A DNA stretch of 64,000 bases from Pseudanabaena sp. Chao 1811 (GTDB lineage: Bacteria > Cyanobacteriota > Cyanobacteriia > Pseudanabaenales > Pseudanabaenaceae), in NCBI RefSeq assembly GCF_027942295.1, contig NZ_CP101416.1, forward strand, positions 1,364,001 to 1,428,000, in the 5' to 3' direction. A program made the translations under genes and the position numbers. Shown here piece after piece: positions 2,709-9,250 of this stretch. Each line of letters begins with the position of its first letter. The first letter of the stretch is position 1. Under the pieces are notes generated by a model that was not told the origin of the DNA, did no database searches, and worked only from the letters and a program-made list of their open reading frames with translations.

Positions 2709-2720
2709 ATAGTAACTAAC

Positions 2721-2748
2721 AGAAAAGCCGCCCTAGGGCGGCTTTTCT
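2721..2748 (+). terminator. Rho-independent terminator of ycf54
   Basis: Perfect hairpin: arm AGAAAAGCCGCCCT directly followed by AGGGCGGCTTTTCT, with a T run on the 3' side. It lies 13 bp after the ycf54 stop. Confidence 0.9.
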
Positions 2749-2769
2749 ATTGAGGATATGTGCTAAGGT

Positions 2770-3711
2770 GTGACCTTGAAATTGACGATTATCTCCAATA
2801 TTGTGTCTAGCCTTTTTCGCAGAGATCCTTTGATTAGCTTGCCTTCCCCACATGGGTATGCCAATTTTGGTTTTAAGGCGATCGCTGCAAATGGTCAGAG
2901 TTACAAATATGGCGATCGCAATTTATATACTGTCATTCCTAAATCTAAGCCGCAAAATGTAGAAACAAAGCCTTTAGGTTATAGGTTTGAGCTAATTCAG
3001 AGCTTCTCCATTCAAAAAGCAGGAAATGCGATCGCTGAATGTGAAGATATTTGGCATTATGCTAAAGGCGATCAGCAAATTTCTATCGCCCTGTCCGATG
3101 GCGCAACGGAATCTTCCTTTGCGAAGGAATGGGCAAAAGAATTAGTAACTGCTTTTGTGAATCGTGATCATGCCTTTATGGAGGAACCGAATCTCCAAAG
3201 TTGGCTCCAACCTATACAACAAACTTGGCAACAATGGCTAGTCAATCAAAATTTGACTTGGTTTGCCAAACGCAAAGCAGGCGCAGGAGCTTTCGCGACT
3301 TTTTTGGGTTTAGAAATTTTGCCAGATTTGAGTTGGCAGGCTTTAGCAACTGGGGATTCTTGCTTATTTATAGTCCGCAATCAGCAAGCAAACCTCTATT
3401 TCCCAATCCAAAACAGCCATGAATTTAATCATCGACCAAGATTAATTGGCACATATACTGAAGTTGCAAATATTCAGATGCATCAAGCTCATGGGGTTGC
3501 GGAATTAGGAGATCGCTTTTATTTGACTACCGATGCGATCGCCTGTTGGATTTTCAAGCAACTAGAAGCGAGTCAAGATCCTTGGGTAAAATTAGGTGAG
3601 CTTAGATCTCAAGATCATTTTGCTCAATGGGTGAATGAATTGCGCGATCGCCATGAGATCGCTAATGACGATACAACTTTGCTATGCCTAGAAATTTGTC
3701 GTGAGTCATGA
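2770..3711 (+). CDS. PP2C-family Ser/Thr protein phosphatase
   Basis: The 313-residue product has the ordered aspartate motifs of metal-dependent PP2C phosphatases: ISIALSDGATESS (residues ~110-122), ALATGDSCLF (~195), RFYLTTDAIACW (~255) and the C-terminal NDDTTLLCLEI (~300). These are the expected metal-binding aspartates, although the usual DG of the third motif is DA here. The start is GTG at 2770. The stop overlaps the ATG of the kinase gene by 4 bp (ATGA), so the two are translationally coupled and probably act on the same targets. PP2C domain is secure; the physiological target is unknown. Confidence 0.85.
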   Translation: MTLKLTIISNIVSSLFRRDPLISLPSPHGYANFGFKAIAANGQSYKYGDRNLYTVIPKSKPQNVETKPLGYRFELIQSFSIQKAGNAIAECEDIWHYAKGDQQISIALSDGATESSFAKEWAKELVTAFVNRDHAFMEEPNLQSWLQPIQQTWQQWLVNQNLTWFAKRKAGAGAFATFLGLEILPDLSWQALATGDSCLFIVRNQQANLYFPIQNSHEFNHRPRLIGTYTEVANIQMHQAHGVAELGDRFYLTTDAIACWIFKQLEASQDPWVKLGELRSQDHFAQWVNELRDRHEIANDDTTLLCLEICRES

Positions 3712-5654
3712 CCGATATCCAAACTTGGCCGTTAAATATTGACTTCACGATCGCGGTACAAAATCCGCAGCTTTGCTTTGCAGATCCTGACCTCAAGCAA
3801 GCTAGTACATCCAAGAATTCACGGGGTAGAGTTTTACTATGGTCAGGTAATTTTGCCACGGTTTATAAGCTTACAAAGGGCGATCGCTCTTGGGCAGTGC
3901 GATGCTTTACGCGCATACCTCAAACCGATGTACAGGAACGCTATCAGTTAATTAGTGAATATCTCAGTCAACATCAGATTCCCTATTTAGTAGATTTTGA
4001 ATTTTTGGCGCAGGGAATTTTGGTGAAAGGTCAATGGTATCCAATTCTAAAAATGGATTGGGTCGAGGGAACAGAGCTAGATCGCTATATTGGCGAATAT
4101 ATTGACGATTCACAGGTATTACTGCGTTTAGAGCGCCAGTTGCAACAACTCCAAAAAGATTTGCAACGGGTAGGCATTGCTCACGGTGACTTACAACATG
4201 GCAATATCATGGTGGACGATCATGGGGAATTGAAACTCGTTGACTATGACGGCATGTATGTGCCTGCATTGCGGGGTTCACCGCCCCTTGAGGTAGGACA
4301 TCCTAACTATCAGCCACCCAAGCGCTCAACTAAAGATTTTGGCGATCGCCTTGATGAATTTTCCTTTGCAGTAATTTCCCTATCACTGCGTGCTTTAGCC
4401 ACAGAGCCTCATTTGTGGGCAACCTTTCACGAAGACAATAAAAATTTAATTTTTCGGCAAAATGACTTTCAAGAGCCTGATGCCTCACCTGTATTTCAGG
4501 CGATCGCCAATATTCCCGATGATGAGACTCGCGAACTATGCGATCGCTTGATCCGTCAATGTCATGGCAAAGAGCATGAAGCCAAGCAAGATCTCCAAGA
4601 TTCAAAATCTCTTTTCAAGCTTCTACCTAATAGAGCCTTACTATGGGGAGTATTAGGCATCATCGTCTCATTAGCTACTGTTGGCGGTATTTTGCTACTG
4701 TTCTCCAAGAATAAAACTCCAGACCTAATTAGCAAAACTCCTGAGCTAAAACCGACAAGTTTCCCCACCAGTCCGCTACAACCAACTAGTTCACCCACTA
4801 CTGTTCTAGACAAGCCTGTTAAGTTAACTCCGATTACTGTGTCTGCTTTACTAGAGCAATATGCCAAGGGGCGGCGTGATTTCTCCTATGTGCAGTTGAC
4901 GGGGACTCAAGGCGATCGCCTACAAGGTCAAGATTTACGCAATATCAATCTCAGTAACTCCATCCTAGAAGGAGGGAACCTACGACAATTAATCCTCAAA
5001 AATGCCAACTTAAACGGCATTAAGTTAATCAAAGTCGATCTCCGAGGAGCAGATCTGAGTAATGCAAGCCTAATTGATGCAAACTTGGCACTATCTAATC
5101 TATCAGATGCAGATCTTACGCAATCTAGCTTATTACGGACAAATTTAGCCCAGTCAAAGCTTGGCTCAGCAATATTCCAAAAAGCTGAATTAATGAAAAG
5201 TAATCTCAGTGAAGCTGATCTCAACTCAGCCAATCTGAGTGGCGCAAATTTAGCACTTGCCAATCTGAGGAAAACTAATCTAACTAAGGCAAATCTGCGT
5301 GAGAGTAACTTATCCGCAGCAAATCTCAGTGAGGCAATTCTCGAAAATGCTGATTTAACCGCCGCCGATTTGCGATCGGCGGAACTCCACCAAACGATTT
5401 TTACCAATGCCAATCTTAGTGCTGCCAACCTCACCGCCGCAAATCTTGTCTTAGTTGATTTGTCAGGGGCAAATCTGAATGGGGCAAATTTTCGGAATGC
5501 GATCGTGGAGAATATTGGCACTATTGAATCCGCCGATTTTACAAACGTTATCAATCTTGCCAGTAATGTTCGTAAATATTTCTGCTCATCGGCTTCTGGC
5601 AATATCACTGAGACGGGCTTAACTACAAAATCAACTCTTAACTGTTTGCCATAG
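3708..5654 (+). CDS. Membrane-anchored protein kinase with C-terminal pentapeptide repeats
   Basis: The 648-residue product is a three-part protein. Residues 1-~280 are a eukaryotic-like kinase domain with a short Gly-rich SGNFATVYKL, a Lys-poor VAIK region (SWAVRCFTR), catalytic loop AHGDLQHGNIM (HxD and Asn) and DYDGMYVP in place of DFG. Residues ~311-333 (LLWGVLGIIVSLATVGGILL) form one membrane helix, followed by a Pro/Ser/Thr-rich linker. Residues ~400-625 are A(D/N)LXX pentapeptide repeats forming a right-handed beta helix outside or beyond the membrane. It overlaps the PP2C gene. The kinase plus PP2C pairing recalls E. coli YegI/YegK (family knowledge). Activity is likely, since HxD, Asn and Asp are kept, but unproven; the signal is unknown. 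Confidence 0.85.
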   Translation: MTDIQTWPLNIDFTIAVQNPQLCFADPDLKQASTSKNSRGRVLLWSGNFATVYKLTKGDRSWAVRCFTRIPQTDVQERYQLISEYLSQHQIPYLVDFEFLAQGILVKGQWYPILKMDWVEGTELDRYIGEYIDDSQVLLRLERQLQQLQKDLQRVGIAHGDLQHGNIMVDDHGELKLVDYDGMYVPALRGSPPLEVGHPNYQPPKRSTKDFGDRLDEFSFAVISLSLRALATEPHLWATFHEDNKNLIFRQNDFQEPDASPVFQAIANIPDDETRELCDRLIRQCHGKEHEAKQDLQDSKSLFKLLPNRALLWGVLGIIVSLATVGGILLLFSKNKTPDLISKTPELKPTSFPTSPLQPTSSPTTVLDKPVKLTPITVSALLEQYAKGRRDFSYVQLTGTQGDRLQGQDLRNINLSNSILEGGNLRQLILKNANLNGIKLIKVDLRGADLSNASLIDANLALSNLSDADLTQSSLLRTNLAQSKLGSAIFQKAELMKSNLSEADLNSANLSGANLALANLRKTNLTKANLRESNLSAANLSEAILENADLTAADLRSAELHQTIFTNANLSAANLTAANLVLVDLSGANLNGANFRNAIVENIGTIESADFTNVINLASNVRKYFCSSASGNITETGLTTKSTLNCLP

Positions 5655-5692
5655 TTTATAGATAGTGATGCTTCTCTATTTAGATTTATGAG

Positions 5693-5739
5693 AACTAATT
5701 TTTTGTGGTGTTGCTTCGCCACACCACAAAAAATTAGTT
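5693..5739. terminator. Long hairpin between the kinase gene and the facing GNAT gene
   Basis: A 19-bp perfect inverted repeat: AACTAATTTTTTGTGGTGT, a 9-nt loop TGCTTCGCC, then the exact complement. A/T tracts flank a GTGGTGT core. It lies between convergent genes and can terminate both. Confidence 0.75.
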
Positions 5740-5760
5740 TCTTAGTTCACTGTGCAGCGC

Positions 5761-6273
5761 TTAAACTGCATTAAATTCGGATCGATATCTTACGGTTCCA
5801 CTACAGCCATCTAATACGCCATCTTGCAGTTCTAAAACCATAAATACATCATCTGGAACTGAATATTCGCATTTTAGTCCCTTTCTTTTTGACGAGATAA
5901 AGCCAAAACGTGAATAGAATTCGGGATATCCCAACACCACAATAACTTTGTATCCTAAATGAGCACATTGCACTAAACCATGCCGAATCAATAGTGAGCC
6001 AATTCCCTGTCGTTGATATTGAGGCAATACGGCTAATGGGGCTAGTCCAAGCATCCTTAAATTATCAGGATATGATCCTTCAACGATAACTGGACTAAAT
6101 AAAATATGACCCACAATTTGCTGAGACTCTGTAGCTACAAAGGAAAAAGTATCTGCAATGCCACGCAATTGATTAACTAAATGTGCTTCATTTGCACGCC
6201 CAAATGCTGCGGTATTAACTACCTGAATAGCATTTAAATCTTCTGGCTGCTCAGCTCGAATTTCCATAGCCAA
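5761..6273 (-). CDS. GNAT-family N-acetyltransferase (YhbS-like)
   Basis: This 170-residue protein has the GNAT fold signature: N-terminal beta-alpha IRAEQPEDLNAIQVVNTAAF, the acceptor-side strand IVGHILFSP, and the acetyl-CoA pyrophosphate loop PQYQRQGIGSLLIRHGL (Q/RxxGxG/A). The segment VVLGYPEFYSRFGF is typical of the YhbS/COG3153 group. The substrate is not evident. It faces the kinase gene and shares the hairpin terminator; it is divergent from grpE. Confidence 0.85.
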   Translation of the reverse strand: MAMEIRAEQPEDLNAIQVVNTAAFGRANEAHLVNQLRGIADTFSFVATESQQIVGHILFSPVIVEGSYPDNLRMLGLAPLAVLPQYQRQGIGSLLIRHGLVQCAHLGYKVIVVLGYPEFYSRFGFISSKRKGLKCEYSVPDDVFMVLELQDGVLDGCSGTVRYRSEFNAV

Positions 6274-6486
6274 TAGTTAACAGCGATCGCTTGTTATATT
6301 TTCTAAGAGATATCAAAAGGTAATCTCATACAACCTTATGTTTTTATGCTGGCAATAGCTATACGTTGTCTCAGATAAAGAGTAAAATCGGATTAATTGG
6401 CAAAAATCGTCAAAACTAACCATCAAAAATATCAACTCTTAGCAATTTACTGCTAGTCTGAAAAGCGCGAAAAGAGTATTACCGCA

Positions 6487-7263
6487 ATGATCGAAGAAGA
6501 AAACATATCCACCTCCGATGATCTCTCGGATGATCTCATCGATGAAGATGATGATGTTCTTGAGTCAAGGTTACAACAACTTGCAACTGAAGAATTGAAT
6601 CAACTATCAAACAATGAAGAGCCAAAAGCAGAAAGTTCACAGACTCCTGCCACAAGTGAGGCTAAGCCTGCTGAAGCTAGTAAAGCTAGCGCTGCTGCTG
6701 CTGCAACCCTTGAGAAAATCAACGGTTTGATCGCAGAGTCCACTGCCCTTAAAGAGCAGCTAGACGAGCGCAAGCAACAGTACTTGCGTCTATATGCCGA
6801 CTTCGAGAATTTTCGCAAACGCACCGAGCGCGATAAAGAAGAGCAGGAAGGCACAATTACATCAAAGATCCTCAAAAAAATCTTGCCTGTAGTTGATGAC
6901 TTTGAACGGGCACAGTTACAGATTTCGCCAAAAAATGATGGTGAAGCTGCTATTCACAAAAGTTATCAGTCGGTATATAAGCAATTACTAAAATGCCTTA
7001 AGGAAACAGGTGTAGCCAGAATGGAGGCAGTCGGTCAAGATTTTGATCCTAACTTCCATGAAGCCATTATGCAGGAACCTTCGGCGGAATACGATGAGGG
7101 CATTATCACCGAAGAACTACGCCCAGGATACTTAGTCAGCGACGATCGCGTTTTACGCCATGCCCTAGTTAAAGTATCTTCAGGTAAACTTGACGGTGCT
7201 GATAGTGCGGCTGAGAATGGCGCAGAAAATTCGCAAAACAATGACTCTGGCGCATCTAATTAA
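6487..7263 (+). CDS. grpE: GrpE nucleotide-exchange factor
   Basis: GrpE releases ADP from DnaK. The 258-residue product has a long acidic, Ala/Ser-rich N-terminus (residues 1-75), a coiled-coil region with the family signature QYLRLYADFENFRKRTERDKEE (split here: LYADFENFRKR then TERDKEE), ILPVVDDFERA, and the C-terminal beta domain with EPSAEYDEGIITEELRPGY. It is directly upstream of dnaK in the same direction, the common cyanobacterial order. No CIRCE element was found upstream. A small palindrome (TAGCA-ATTTAC-TGCTA) lies about 45 bp before the start. Confidence 0.97.
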   Translation: MIEEENISTSDDLSDDLIDEDDDVLESRLQQLATEELNQLSNNEEPKAESSQTPATSEAKPAEASKASAAAAATLEKINGLIAESTALKEQLDERKQQYLRLYADFENFRKRTERDKEEQEGTITSKILKKILPVVDDFERAQLQISPKNDGEAAIHKSYQSVYKQLLKCLKETGVARMEAVGQDFDPNFHEAIMQEPSAEYDEGIITEELRPGYLVSDDRVLRHALVKVSSGKLDGADSAAENGAENSQNNDSGASN

Positions 7264-7283
7264 ACTGCCTTAATTAATAAACC

Positions 7284-7315
7284 ATTCAAGATGCGATCGC
7301 AATTGCATCTTGAAT
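7284..7315. terminator. Hairpin in the grpE-dnaK gap
   Basis: ATTCAAGATGC pairs with GCATCTTGAAT around a 10-nt loop holding HIP1-like GATCGC. There is no strong T tract, so it may be a partial terminator, an mRNA processing site or a chance structure. It separates grpE from dnaK by 127 bp. Confidence 0.45.
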
Positions 7316-7390
7316 CGCATTCTTAGGGTACATTATTCAGAAAATCACTAAGCTAAACTTTTAGAAAAGCTTTTCACGGAACTGGCGATT

Positions 7391-9250
7391 ATGTCGAAAG
7401 TAATTGGGATTGACCTTGGGACGACAAACAGTTGTGTTTCAGTGTTAGAAGGTGGCAAACCTGTTGTCATCTCTAGTGCAGAAGGAGGACGTACCACACC
7501 GAGTATTGTCGCCTTTGTCAAGGATAGCAATGAGCGGATTGTTGGTCAGGTTGCTAAGCGCCAATCCGTTACGAACTCTGTGAATACGGTTTATAGTATC
7601 AAGCGTTTTATTGGTCGCGGCTGGGCAGAGACTGAAGACGAACGTCGTCGTGTTCCTTATACTGCCGTTAAGGGTAAAGATGACACCGTTGATGTGCAGA
7701 TCGGCGATAGAACCTATACGCCCCAAGAAATTTCCGCAATGATATTGCAAAAGCTTAAACAAGATGCGGAAAATTATCTAGGCGAAGAAGTGACTCAAGC
7801 GGTTATTACCGTACCTGCTTACTTTACAGATACACAACGCCAAGCGACTAAAGATGCTGGGGCTATTTCGGGAATGGAGGTCTTGCGAATTGTCAATGAG
7901 CCAACGGCGGCGGCGCTTGCCTATGGATTGGACAAGCAGGATCAAGATCAGATTGTTTTAGTGTTTGACCTTGGCGGCGGTACATTCGATGTGTCCGTAC
8001 TGCAACTAGGGGACGGCATTTTTGAAGTTAAGGCAACTTCAGGGAATAATCACCTTGGGGGGGATGACTTTGACGCAGCGATCGTCGATTGGCTGATTGC
8101 TGACTTTAAGGAAAAAGAAGGTATTGATTTATCAACGGATAAGACGGCGATTCAGAGACTTAAAGAAGCTGCCGAAAAAGCTAAAATTGAGCTATCTAGC
8201 GCTCCTTCCACTTTAATTAGCTTGCCCTTCATTGCGGCTAATGAGACAGGACCTAAGACCATTGAGCTAGATTTTACCCGTTCTAAGTTTGACGAGATTA
8301 CCGCACACCTAGTAAAAGCAACCCTTGAGCCAACCGCCCAAGCGCTAAAAGATGCAGGGTTACTGCCAAAGGAAATTAATCGCATTATTTTAGTTGGTGG
8401 CTCAACCCGAATTCCTTCAGTTCAGGATGCCATTTCTAAGTTTTTTGACGGCAAAAAGCCCGATCAATCGGTTAATCCCGATGAAGCTGTAGCGATCGGT
8501 GCAGCTGTGCAAGCAGGGATTCTCGGTGGTGAGGTTAAGGATCTCTTACTACTTGATGTTATTCCCCTATCCATTGGGCTAGAAACTCAAGGTGGCGTAT
8601 TTACGAAAAATTTAGAACGCAACACTACAATCCCTACCAGCAAGTCACAGATTTTCTCCACTGCCGTTGACAACCAATCGGCTGTAGAAATCCATGTCCT
8701 ACAGGGTGAACGGGCAATGGCAAAGGACAATAAGAGCCTTGGCAAATTTGAGCTAGAGGGTATACGGCCTGCTCCGCGAGGCATTCCTCAGATCGAGGTG
8801 TCCTTTGATATTGATGCTAACGGCATTCTCAAAGTTTCAGCCCGTGATGTGGATACTGGAGTTGAACAAAGTATCAGTATTACGAATACGGGTGGCTTAA
8901 GTCCTAGCGAAATTGAAAGAATGCGGATGGAAGCCGAGGTCTATGCTGATGAAGACTCTGCTCGTCGCGAACTTGCCAACATGCGGAACCAAGCATCTAA
9001 TCTGATTCGCACCGTTGAAGAAATCCTGAAAGATAATGGTCCTACAGTAATCAGTCAGAGTATGCGTGAGACCCCTCTCAAAAACATGGAAATACTCAAG
9101 AATTTGTATGAATCTGAAGAAGCTACTTACGAAGATTTACAAATTGCCATCAAGCCATTGCAACAGTCCTTGTTTGAACTAACTCAAGCCGTAGAAAAAT
9201 ACTCTCAAGTTGAGCGTGTCAAGCAAAAGTCTAGCGATGCTTTAGAATAA
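7391..9250 (+). CDS. dnaK: Molecular chaperone DnaK (Hsp70), short C-terminus
   Basis: Cytoplasmic ATP-driven chaperone. The N-terminal ATPase domain shows [56 protein letters not shown] and [17 protein letters not shown]; the substrate domain starts near [18 protein letters not shown]; a helical lid follows. At 619 residues it ends in [10 protein letters not shown] without the acidic DDVIDAEF-type tail common in bacterial DnaK proteins. Its position after grpE suggests the heat-inducible DnaK2 role. Start ATG at 7391 gives the canonical [11 protein letters not shown] terminator follows immediately. Confidence 0.97.

What the first reader, a model, noticed from the sequence alone, without database searches (positions are those of the whole stretch)
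2770..5654. Coupled PP2C phosphatase and transmembrane pentapeptide-repeat kinase
The phosphatase and kinase genes overlap by 4 bp. The kinase keeps HxD and Asn but has DYD for DFG, has one membrane helix and a long pentapeptide beta helix as a possible sensor. It is an opposed writer/eraser pair in one operon, reminiscent of E. coli YegI/YegK.
Basis: partly seen in the sequence, partly recalled or inferred. Interest (0 to 1): 0.55.

Follow-up and report, generated by a model that had tools for sequence, protein, structure and literature searches.

The report
Split, membrane-bound TerY-type phosphorylation triad
A cyanobacterium carries a protein kinase and its opposing phosphatase that belong to a known anti-virus protein trio, but here the kinase is anchored in the membrane with a long sensor-like tail and the third member sits almost two million bases away, which suggests a defence module turned into an everyday signalling system.

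Summary
In detail: a PP2C phosphatase (2770-3711) and a kinase with one membrane helix and a pentapeptide helix (3708-5654) overlap by 4 bp. The pair is not a YegI/YegK homologue at family level. Both proteins belong to the TerY-P phosphorylation triad (PADLOC STK_OB E=1.7e-77, PP2C 6.6e-33), a vWA + PP2C + kinase module known from anti-phage systems. The third member, TerY, is in the same genome about 1.92 Mb away. All 26 genus genomes have the kinase and 25 have an unlinked TerY. In the family, kinase and PP2C occur in the same 32 of 38 genomes and TerY in 31 of those 32; the other six lack all three. Two sister genera keep the triad linked with the same membrane-pentapeptide kinase; two have it fully dispersed. 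The kinase domain and TerY evolve nearly as slowly as DnaK (dN/dS 0.016-0.043). Catalytic Asp/Asn/metal residues are kept, but the beta-3 lysine is arginine in all 32 family kinases. Most likely this is a TerY-P triad converted into a conserved, membrane-bound Ser/Thr signalling system and split up. Activity, topology, signal and substrate are inferred. Rating: new variant of a known kind.

The parts
2770..3711 (+). PP2C-type Ser/Thr phosphatase of the TerY-P kind, 313 aa (GTG start; a start at GTG 2803 is also possible). Asp positions D93, D110, D196, D255, D300, D301 kept
   Evidence: PADLOC PP2C 6.6e-33. These Asp are also identical in 10 of 10 diverse PP2Cs aligned; that they are the metal ligands is recalled PP2C knowledge.
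3708..5654 (+). TerY-P-type protein kinase with one membrane helix and pentapeptide C-terminus, 648 aa
   Evidence: (PADLOC STK_OB 1.7e-77 over aa 13-273).
3708..4577 (+). Kinase domain, about aa 1-290
   Evidence: Pfam Pkinase 5.6e-10; AF2 model pLDDT 83.6, pTM 0.82; PDB kinases at VIA Z about 16.
3900..3902 (+). Arg65 at the beta-3 'VAIK' lysine position
   Evidence: Invariant in 21/21 and R in all 32 family kinases; K or R in other TerY-P kinases.
4182..4205 (+). Catalytic loop HGDLQHGN (aa 159-166)
4242..4253 (+). DYDG (aa 179-182), replacing DFG
   Evidence: D179, Y180, D181 invariant also in linked-triad kinases.
4635..4700 (+). Transmembrane helix, aa 310-331
   Evidence: AF2 helix; hydropathy maximum 2.45.
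4701..4823 (+). Pro/Ser/Thr-rich variable linker, aa 332-372
   Evidence: dN/dS 0.33-0.73 for aa 300-370.
4824..5567 (+). Pentapeptide-repeat beta helix, aa about 373-620
   Evidence: Pfam Pentapeptide 5.1e-42; mostly pLDDT over 90.
5583..5645 (+). C-terminal cap with invariant C626 and C646 (candidate disulfide)
   Evidence: the pair is present in 29 of 29 full-length family kinases.
2718..2751 (.). 15-bp-stem inverted repeat between ycf54 and the PP2C gene
   Evidence: called terminator-like on the - strand only, no excess over shuffles.
5693..5739 (.). Perfect 18-bp-arm inverted repeat after the kinase gene, possible end of the unit
   Evidence: Read; its core is found once in the window and in none of 100 shuffles.

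Best explanation
The pair is the phosphatase-kinase half of a TerY-P phosphorylation triad that was kept, moved into the membrane and split up in Pseudanabaenaceae. Proposed mechanism: the kinase sits in the membrane with its catalytic domain in the cytoplasm and its pentapeptide helix outside (periplasm or thylakoid lumen). A signal or binding partner at the helix sets kinase activity towards one or more unknown Ser/Thr substrates. The co-translated PP2C reverses the phosphorylation. TerY, a metal-binding vWA protein encoded 1.92 Mb away, acts in trans as the scaffold or regulator joining kinase, phosphatase and substrate. Shown here: protein families, gene coupling, distribution, dispersal with retention, strong purifying selection, conserved catalytic and MIDAS residues. 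Inferred: catalysis, topology, sensing, TerY's role in trans, a housekeeping rather than phage-defence role.
For: PADLOC hits STK_OB and PP2C. TerY in 25 of 26 genus genomes, in this genome at 3291325-3292212, E=1.8e-91. Kinase, PP2C and TerY in 32, 32 and 31 of 38 family genomes, with six lacking all three; kinase and TerY in the same 7 of 386 phylum genomes. Linked triads with a membrane-pentapeptide kinase in sister genera (L141, L142). Pair next to ycf54 in 23 of 25 other genus genomes (the other two cut by contig ends) and upstream of grpE-dnaK in 24 of 25. dN/dS: kinase domain 0.023-0.043, TerY 0.016-0.041, DnaK 0.012-0.029, linker 0.33-0.73. MIDAS D33/S35/S37/T167/D200 invariant in 38 of 38 TerYs. 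Conserved Cys pair only beyond the membrane helix. Kinase fold with Asp/Asn/Asp kept.
Against: The beta-3 lysine is Arg in all family kinases and no conserved alpha-C Glu was seen at the aligned position, so catalysis is uncertain. No substrate, signal or physical contact is known. Only one joint loss (genus g144) plausibly involved unlinked genes; its placement has support 93/92, and those genomes are small. G406 has kinase and PP2C but no TerY hit (93% complete, 750 contigs). One genome (G390) has a transposase-bearing insertion in the pentapeptide tail. Topology is not decided by flanking charges, which are positive on both sides. Known TerY-P systems act against phages, so a defence role is not excluded.
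Confidence: 0.6

Rival explanations
1. It is still an anti-phage TerY-P system, merely with its genes scattered; phage infection switches the kinase on and phosphorylation blocks phage growth.
For: Membership in the protein families of TerY-P, reported active against T7-like phages and Autographiviridae (passages of PMC7699616 and PMC10889362). One genus member (G394) also carries a classic linked triad (L083).
Against: Present in 26/26 genus genomes at one fixed place; DnaK-like constraint; no match in 50,697 phage records and 2 in 72,556 plasmids. Defence genes are usually patchy and clustered (general knowledge).
Confidence: 0.2
2. The kinase is a pseudokinase: a membrane-bound nucleotide-binding scaffold that recruits or regulates the PP2C and TerY.
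For: Arg at the beta-3 lysine in all 32 family kinases and no conserved alpha-C Glu; DYD for DFG.
Against: Catalytic Asp161, Asn166 and metal Asp179 invariant. K and R alternate at beta-3 among other TerY-P kinases. E. coli YegI, titled as lacking conserved motifs, is reported to autophosphorylate (passage in PMC13232886).
Confidence: 0.17
3. The pair works alone, and TerY is an unrelated leftover kept for another job (for instance with its neighbour operon cyclase-response regulator-vWA-FHA).
For: TerY is unlinked and lies divergent from that operon in most g1 genomes and in g149.
Against: TerY tracks the pair in 31 of 32 family genomes and is absent with it in six. The operon's vWA gene occurs without TerY in G413-G415 and G011, and away from TerY in G409 and G416. 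No TerY without kinase in 386 phylum genomes.
Confidence: 0.12
4. A member of the YegI/YegK (PphC) family.
For: Same layout: membrane kinase plus PP2C, with a vWA gene (yegL) in the E. coli locus overlapping pphC by 4 bp.
Against: No family-level similarity: E=0.026, 0.089 and 0.011 for the three proteins; no STK_OB/PP2C/TerY hits for the E. coli proteins.
Confidence: 0.03

Closest known systems
TerY-P (TerY-phosphorylation) triad, OB-fold kinase type (Gao et al. 2020, known here through passages of PMC11090510 and PMC7699616)
   Same: Kinase and PP2C hit the PADLOC models; a TerY is in the genome; order TerY-PP2C-kinase in the linked sister-genus loci
   Different: TerY unlinked; kinase tail is membrane helix plus pentapeptide helix, not OB-fold or zinc ribbon; in every genus genome examined, at a housekeeping locus
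E. coli YegI / PphC (YegK) / YegL
   Same: Membrane-bound divergent Ser/Thr kinase opposed by a PP2C, with a vWA gene alongside
   Different: No family-level sequence similarity for any of the three; YegI has no pentapeptide repeats to my recollection
Cyanobacterial SpkB (cbSTKII with pentapeptides; PMC2176072 passages)
   Same: Kinase domain followed by pentapeptide repeats; this genome also has at least one such kinase with a canonical HRD motif (L038)
   Different: This kinase has HGDLQHGN/DYDG and hits the TerY-P kinase model; no PP2C or TerY partner of SpkB is known to me

Membership tests
TerY-P triad | Kinase of the TerY-P (STK_OB) family | tested here: met
   PDLC02223 E=1.7e-77, kinase part only
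TerY-P triad | PP2C of the TerY-P family | tested here: met
   PDLC02222 E=6.6e-33
TerY-P triad | TerY vWA protein with intact MIDAS in the genome | tested here: met
   PDLC02224 E=1.8e-91 at 3291325-3292212; MIDAS invariant
TerY-P triad | Three genes adjacent in one locus | tested here: not met
   TerY 1.92 Mb away; adjacency met in L141, L142, L083, L078-L081, L023. Hence 'split variant', not a canonical TerY-P locus
TerY-P triad | Kinase C-terminal OB-fold or zinc ribbon | tested here: not met
   STK_OB match ends at aa 273 of the protein, profile position 270 of 562; tail is TM plus pentapeptide
TerY-P triad | Anti-phage activity | not testable with these tools
   Needs infection assays
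YegI/PphC/YegL | Family-level sequence similarity of the proteins | tested here: not met
   E=0.026, 0.089, 0.011
YegI/PphC/YegL | Membrane-bound divergent kinase opposed by PP2C | tested here: inconclusive
   Membrane helix predicted; opposition not assayed
SpkB-type (cbSTKII) pentapeptide kinase | Canonical HRD/DFG kinase domain with pentapeptides | tested here: not met
   HGDLQHGN and DYDG, Arg at beta-3
Active Hanks-type kinase | Beta-3 Lys, catalytic Asp, Asn, metal Asp | tested here: inconclusive
   Three of four kept; Lys is Arg

The most novel reading that the evidence does not exclude
A mobile anti-phage phosphorylation triad was domesticated in Pseudanabaenaceae into a core transmembrane signalling system: its kinase gained a membrane helix and an extracytoplasmic pentapeptide sensor, its genes dispersed over the chromosome in stages seen in living genera, and TerY still works with the kinase and phosphatase in trans.
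Probability: 0.45. Interest if true: 0.68.

Novelty: new variant of a known kind. Interest (0 to 1): 0.52.

Why it matters
TerY-P triads are known as linked, patchy, defence-associated modules, and how TerY serves the kinase and phosphatase is open. Here sister genera show the same triad linked, half-split and fully scattered, under housekeeping-level constraint and with a membrane sensor-like tail. That gives a natural test of what the triad does when freed from defence islands and whether TerY acts in trans. It also shows that neighbourhood-based searches can miss TerY-P systems: this TerY scores below the Pfam vWA cut-offs and lies far from its partners.

Tried and rejected
YegI/YegK orthology: rejected. 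SpkB-type: rejected on motifs. A PF13519 scan of the own genome for a vWA partner gave six vWA proteins and missed TerY, which only the PADLOC TerY model found. A first look at L025, L028 and L030 as TerY candidates led nowhere. TerY's neighbour operon (cyclase-RR-vWA-FHA) as functional partner: weakened, as its vWA gene occurs without TerY. The AF2 model of the whole kinase had a poor kinase domain (pLDDT about 55), so the domain was folded alone with diverse relatives. Promoter and terminator scans gave no excess over shuffles. PDB sequence search found no close PP2C relative. Kinase and TerY trees (26 and 25 rows, a subset of 12 of 26 genus genomes for the kinase, SH-aLRT only) are unresolved at the base of the family and have long outgroup branches; they are used for no more than family monophyly. 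In one search several minus-strand kinases were not recovered (wrong ORF picked), so 'one SpkB-like pentapeptide kinase' is a minimum. The 20 named loci overlap the unnamed G genomes (equal contig lengths, e.g. 51050) and are not independent of the 26. Papers: only passages or search listings were seen; Gao 2020, Anantharaman 2012 and the two Rajagopalan/Dworkin papers were not read. 'Not in print' rests on searches 74 (Pseudanabaena + TerY: 0 papers), 75 and 88 in this library alone; in 75 only the best 10 of 250 titles were seen.

Full report
Observation. The two ORFs, the 4-bp overlap, the motifs, the membrane helix and the pentapeptide helix are all present as described. Among 26 genomes of the genus, 21 have the exact 4-bp overlap, three a 3-bp gap, one 10 bp and one about 464 bp. 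In all 25 other genus genomes the PP2C lies directly upstream of the kinase (in G407 only its 3' end is on the contig); ycf54 is upstream in 23 of 25 (the other two are cut by contig ends) and grpE-dnaK downstream in 24 of 25 (not found within about 4.5 kb in G386). The genus is Pseudanabaena by the titles of 16 of the 20 closest records; the window's genome itself is unnamed (one contig of 4,729,581 bases).

What it is. General profiles call the proteins PP2C_2, Pkinase and Pentapeptide. The defence library is far more specific: STK_OB (1.7e-77) and PP2C (6.6e-33), two of the three TerY-P proteins. Relatives outside the genus have the classic order: in L023 (Umezawaea) TerY, PP2C and kinase are consecutive and hit all three models, and four genomes of the phylum outside the family have linked triads with other tails (L078-L081).

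The missing third gene. The TerY model finds one TerY in this genome, at 3291325-3292212 on the minus strand (E=1.8e-91), about 1.92 Mb from the pair (window = 1364001-1428000). TerY is found in 25 of 26 genus genomes and was not next to the pair in any (the second, linked triad of G394 is extra); the miss, G406, is 93% complete in 750 contigs. Its MIDAS residues are invariant in 38 of 38 aligned TerYs. It scores below Pfam's vWA cut-offs, which is why one search missed it.

Distribution and dispersal. In the order sample (38 genomes, all of one family) the kinase is in 32, the PP2C in the same 32 and TerY in 31 of them; G410-G415 lack all three. In the phylum sample kinase (E<=1e-25) and TerY (E<=1e-20) are in the same 7 of 386 genomes (Fisher p=4e-15, inflated because linked triads and related genomes are not independent). 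Three arrangements exist in the family: linked TerY-PP2C-kinase (G409, G416), pair plus distant TerY (the 26-genome genus, 25 with TerY), and all three on separate contigs with none of the others as neighbour (G417-G420). Linked and split kinases share helix, pentapeptides and the two C-terminal cysteines (29 of 29 full-length family kinases; G390, G418 and G419 are incomplete) and form one clade (SH-aLRT 99), so the membrane kinase probably predates the splits. On an RpoB tree the genera without the triad fall in both halves of the family, which suggests several joint losses; only the loss in g144, inside the half where TerY was already apart, would be a joint loss of unlinked genes, and its support (93/92) is short of firm.

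Constraint. Against six relatives, dN/dS is 0.023-0.043 for the kinase domain, 0.016-0.041 for TerY, 0.012-0.029 for DnaK, 0.086-0.167 for the pentapeptide region, 0.18-0.27 for PP2C and 0.33-0.73 for the linker (Nei-Gojobori, dS over 1 in some pairs). Neither kinase nor TerY is decaying, and the pace is not that of an arms race. One genome, G390, has an insertion carrying transposase-like ORFs in the pentapeptide tail.

Mechanism. The kinase fold is supported by the model (pLDDT 83.6) and by PDB kinases at Z about 16 (top rows rmsd 3.2-3.6 over about 230 residues). Asp161, Asn166 and Asp179 are kept; the beta-3 lysine is Arg in all 32 family kinases, while other TerY-P kinases have Lys or Arg. 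YegI, described in a title as lacking conserved motifs, is reported to autophosphorylate and to be dephosphorylated by PphC (passage of PMC13232886), so divergence does not exclude activity. A single helix after a cytoplasmic kinase domain puts the pentapeptide helix outside, and the lone Cys pair there fits a disulfide; both are inference. The best reading is a split, domesticated TerY-P triad acting as a transmembrane phosphorylation switch.

Known background. TerY-P: vWA + PP2C + kinase with zinc ribbon or OB-fold, a hypothesised metal-sensing switch, OB type anti-phage (PMC11090510 passages); active against Autographiviridae in Pseudomonas (PMC10889362 passages); a degraded island form in Helicobacter (PMC4978471 passages). 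Pentapeptide kinases in cyanobacteria are known as SpkB-type (PMC2176072 passages). No paper combining Pseudanabaena with TerY was found.

Noticed in passing
L083 (G394:C17), 5203-9020: One genus member carries a second, linked TerY-PP2C-kinase triad whose kinase ends in WD40 repeats; nearby is an ORF that looks like an AAA+ ATPase (3648-4865, by eye).
   Followed up: partly
L099, about 3680-4840: In G390 an insertion with two transposase-like ORFs (IS630-like by eye) interrupts the kinase at aa 560, in the pentapeptide helix; the C-terminal cap lies beyond it.
   Followed up: partly
L082, 9323-15003: TerY is divergent from an operon of GAF-guanylate cyclase, response regulator, second vWA protein and zinc-ribbon FHA protein; the same arrangement is in g149 genomes (L149, L150), and the vWA gene is found in triad-less cyanobacteria too.
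   Followed up: partly
L059, 6470-6473: In E. coli K-12 yegL (vWA) and pphC overlap by 4 bp, so YegL-PphC-YegI looks like a parallel vWA-PP2C-kinase triad.
   Followed up: partly
L038: The same genome has a canonical HRD kinase with a run of pentapeptides (SpkB-like), so kinase-pentapeptide fusion is seen in two kinase lineages.
   Followed up: no
L078-L080: Three Cyanobacteriia genomes carry linked triads with short 433-443 aa kinases and long PP2Cs (510-552 aa) with an unassigned C-terminal part.
   Followed up: no
window 5693-5739: Perfect 18-bp-arm palindrome after the kinase gene; its core occurs once in the window.
   Followed up: partly
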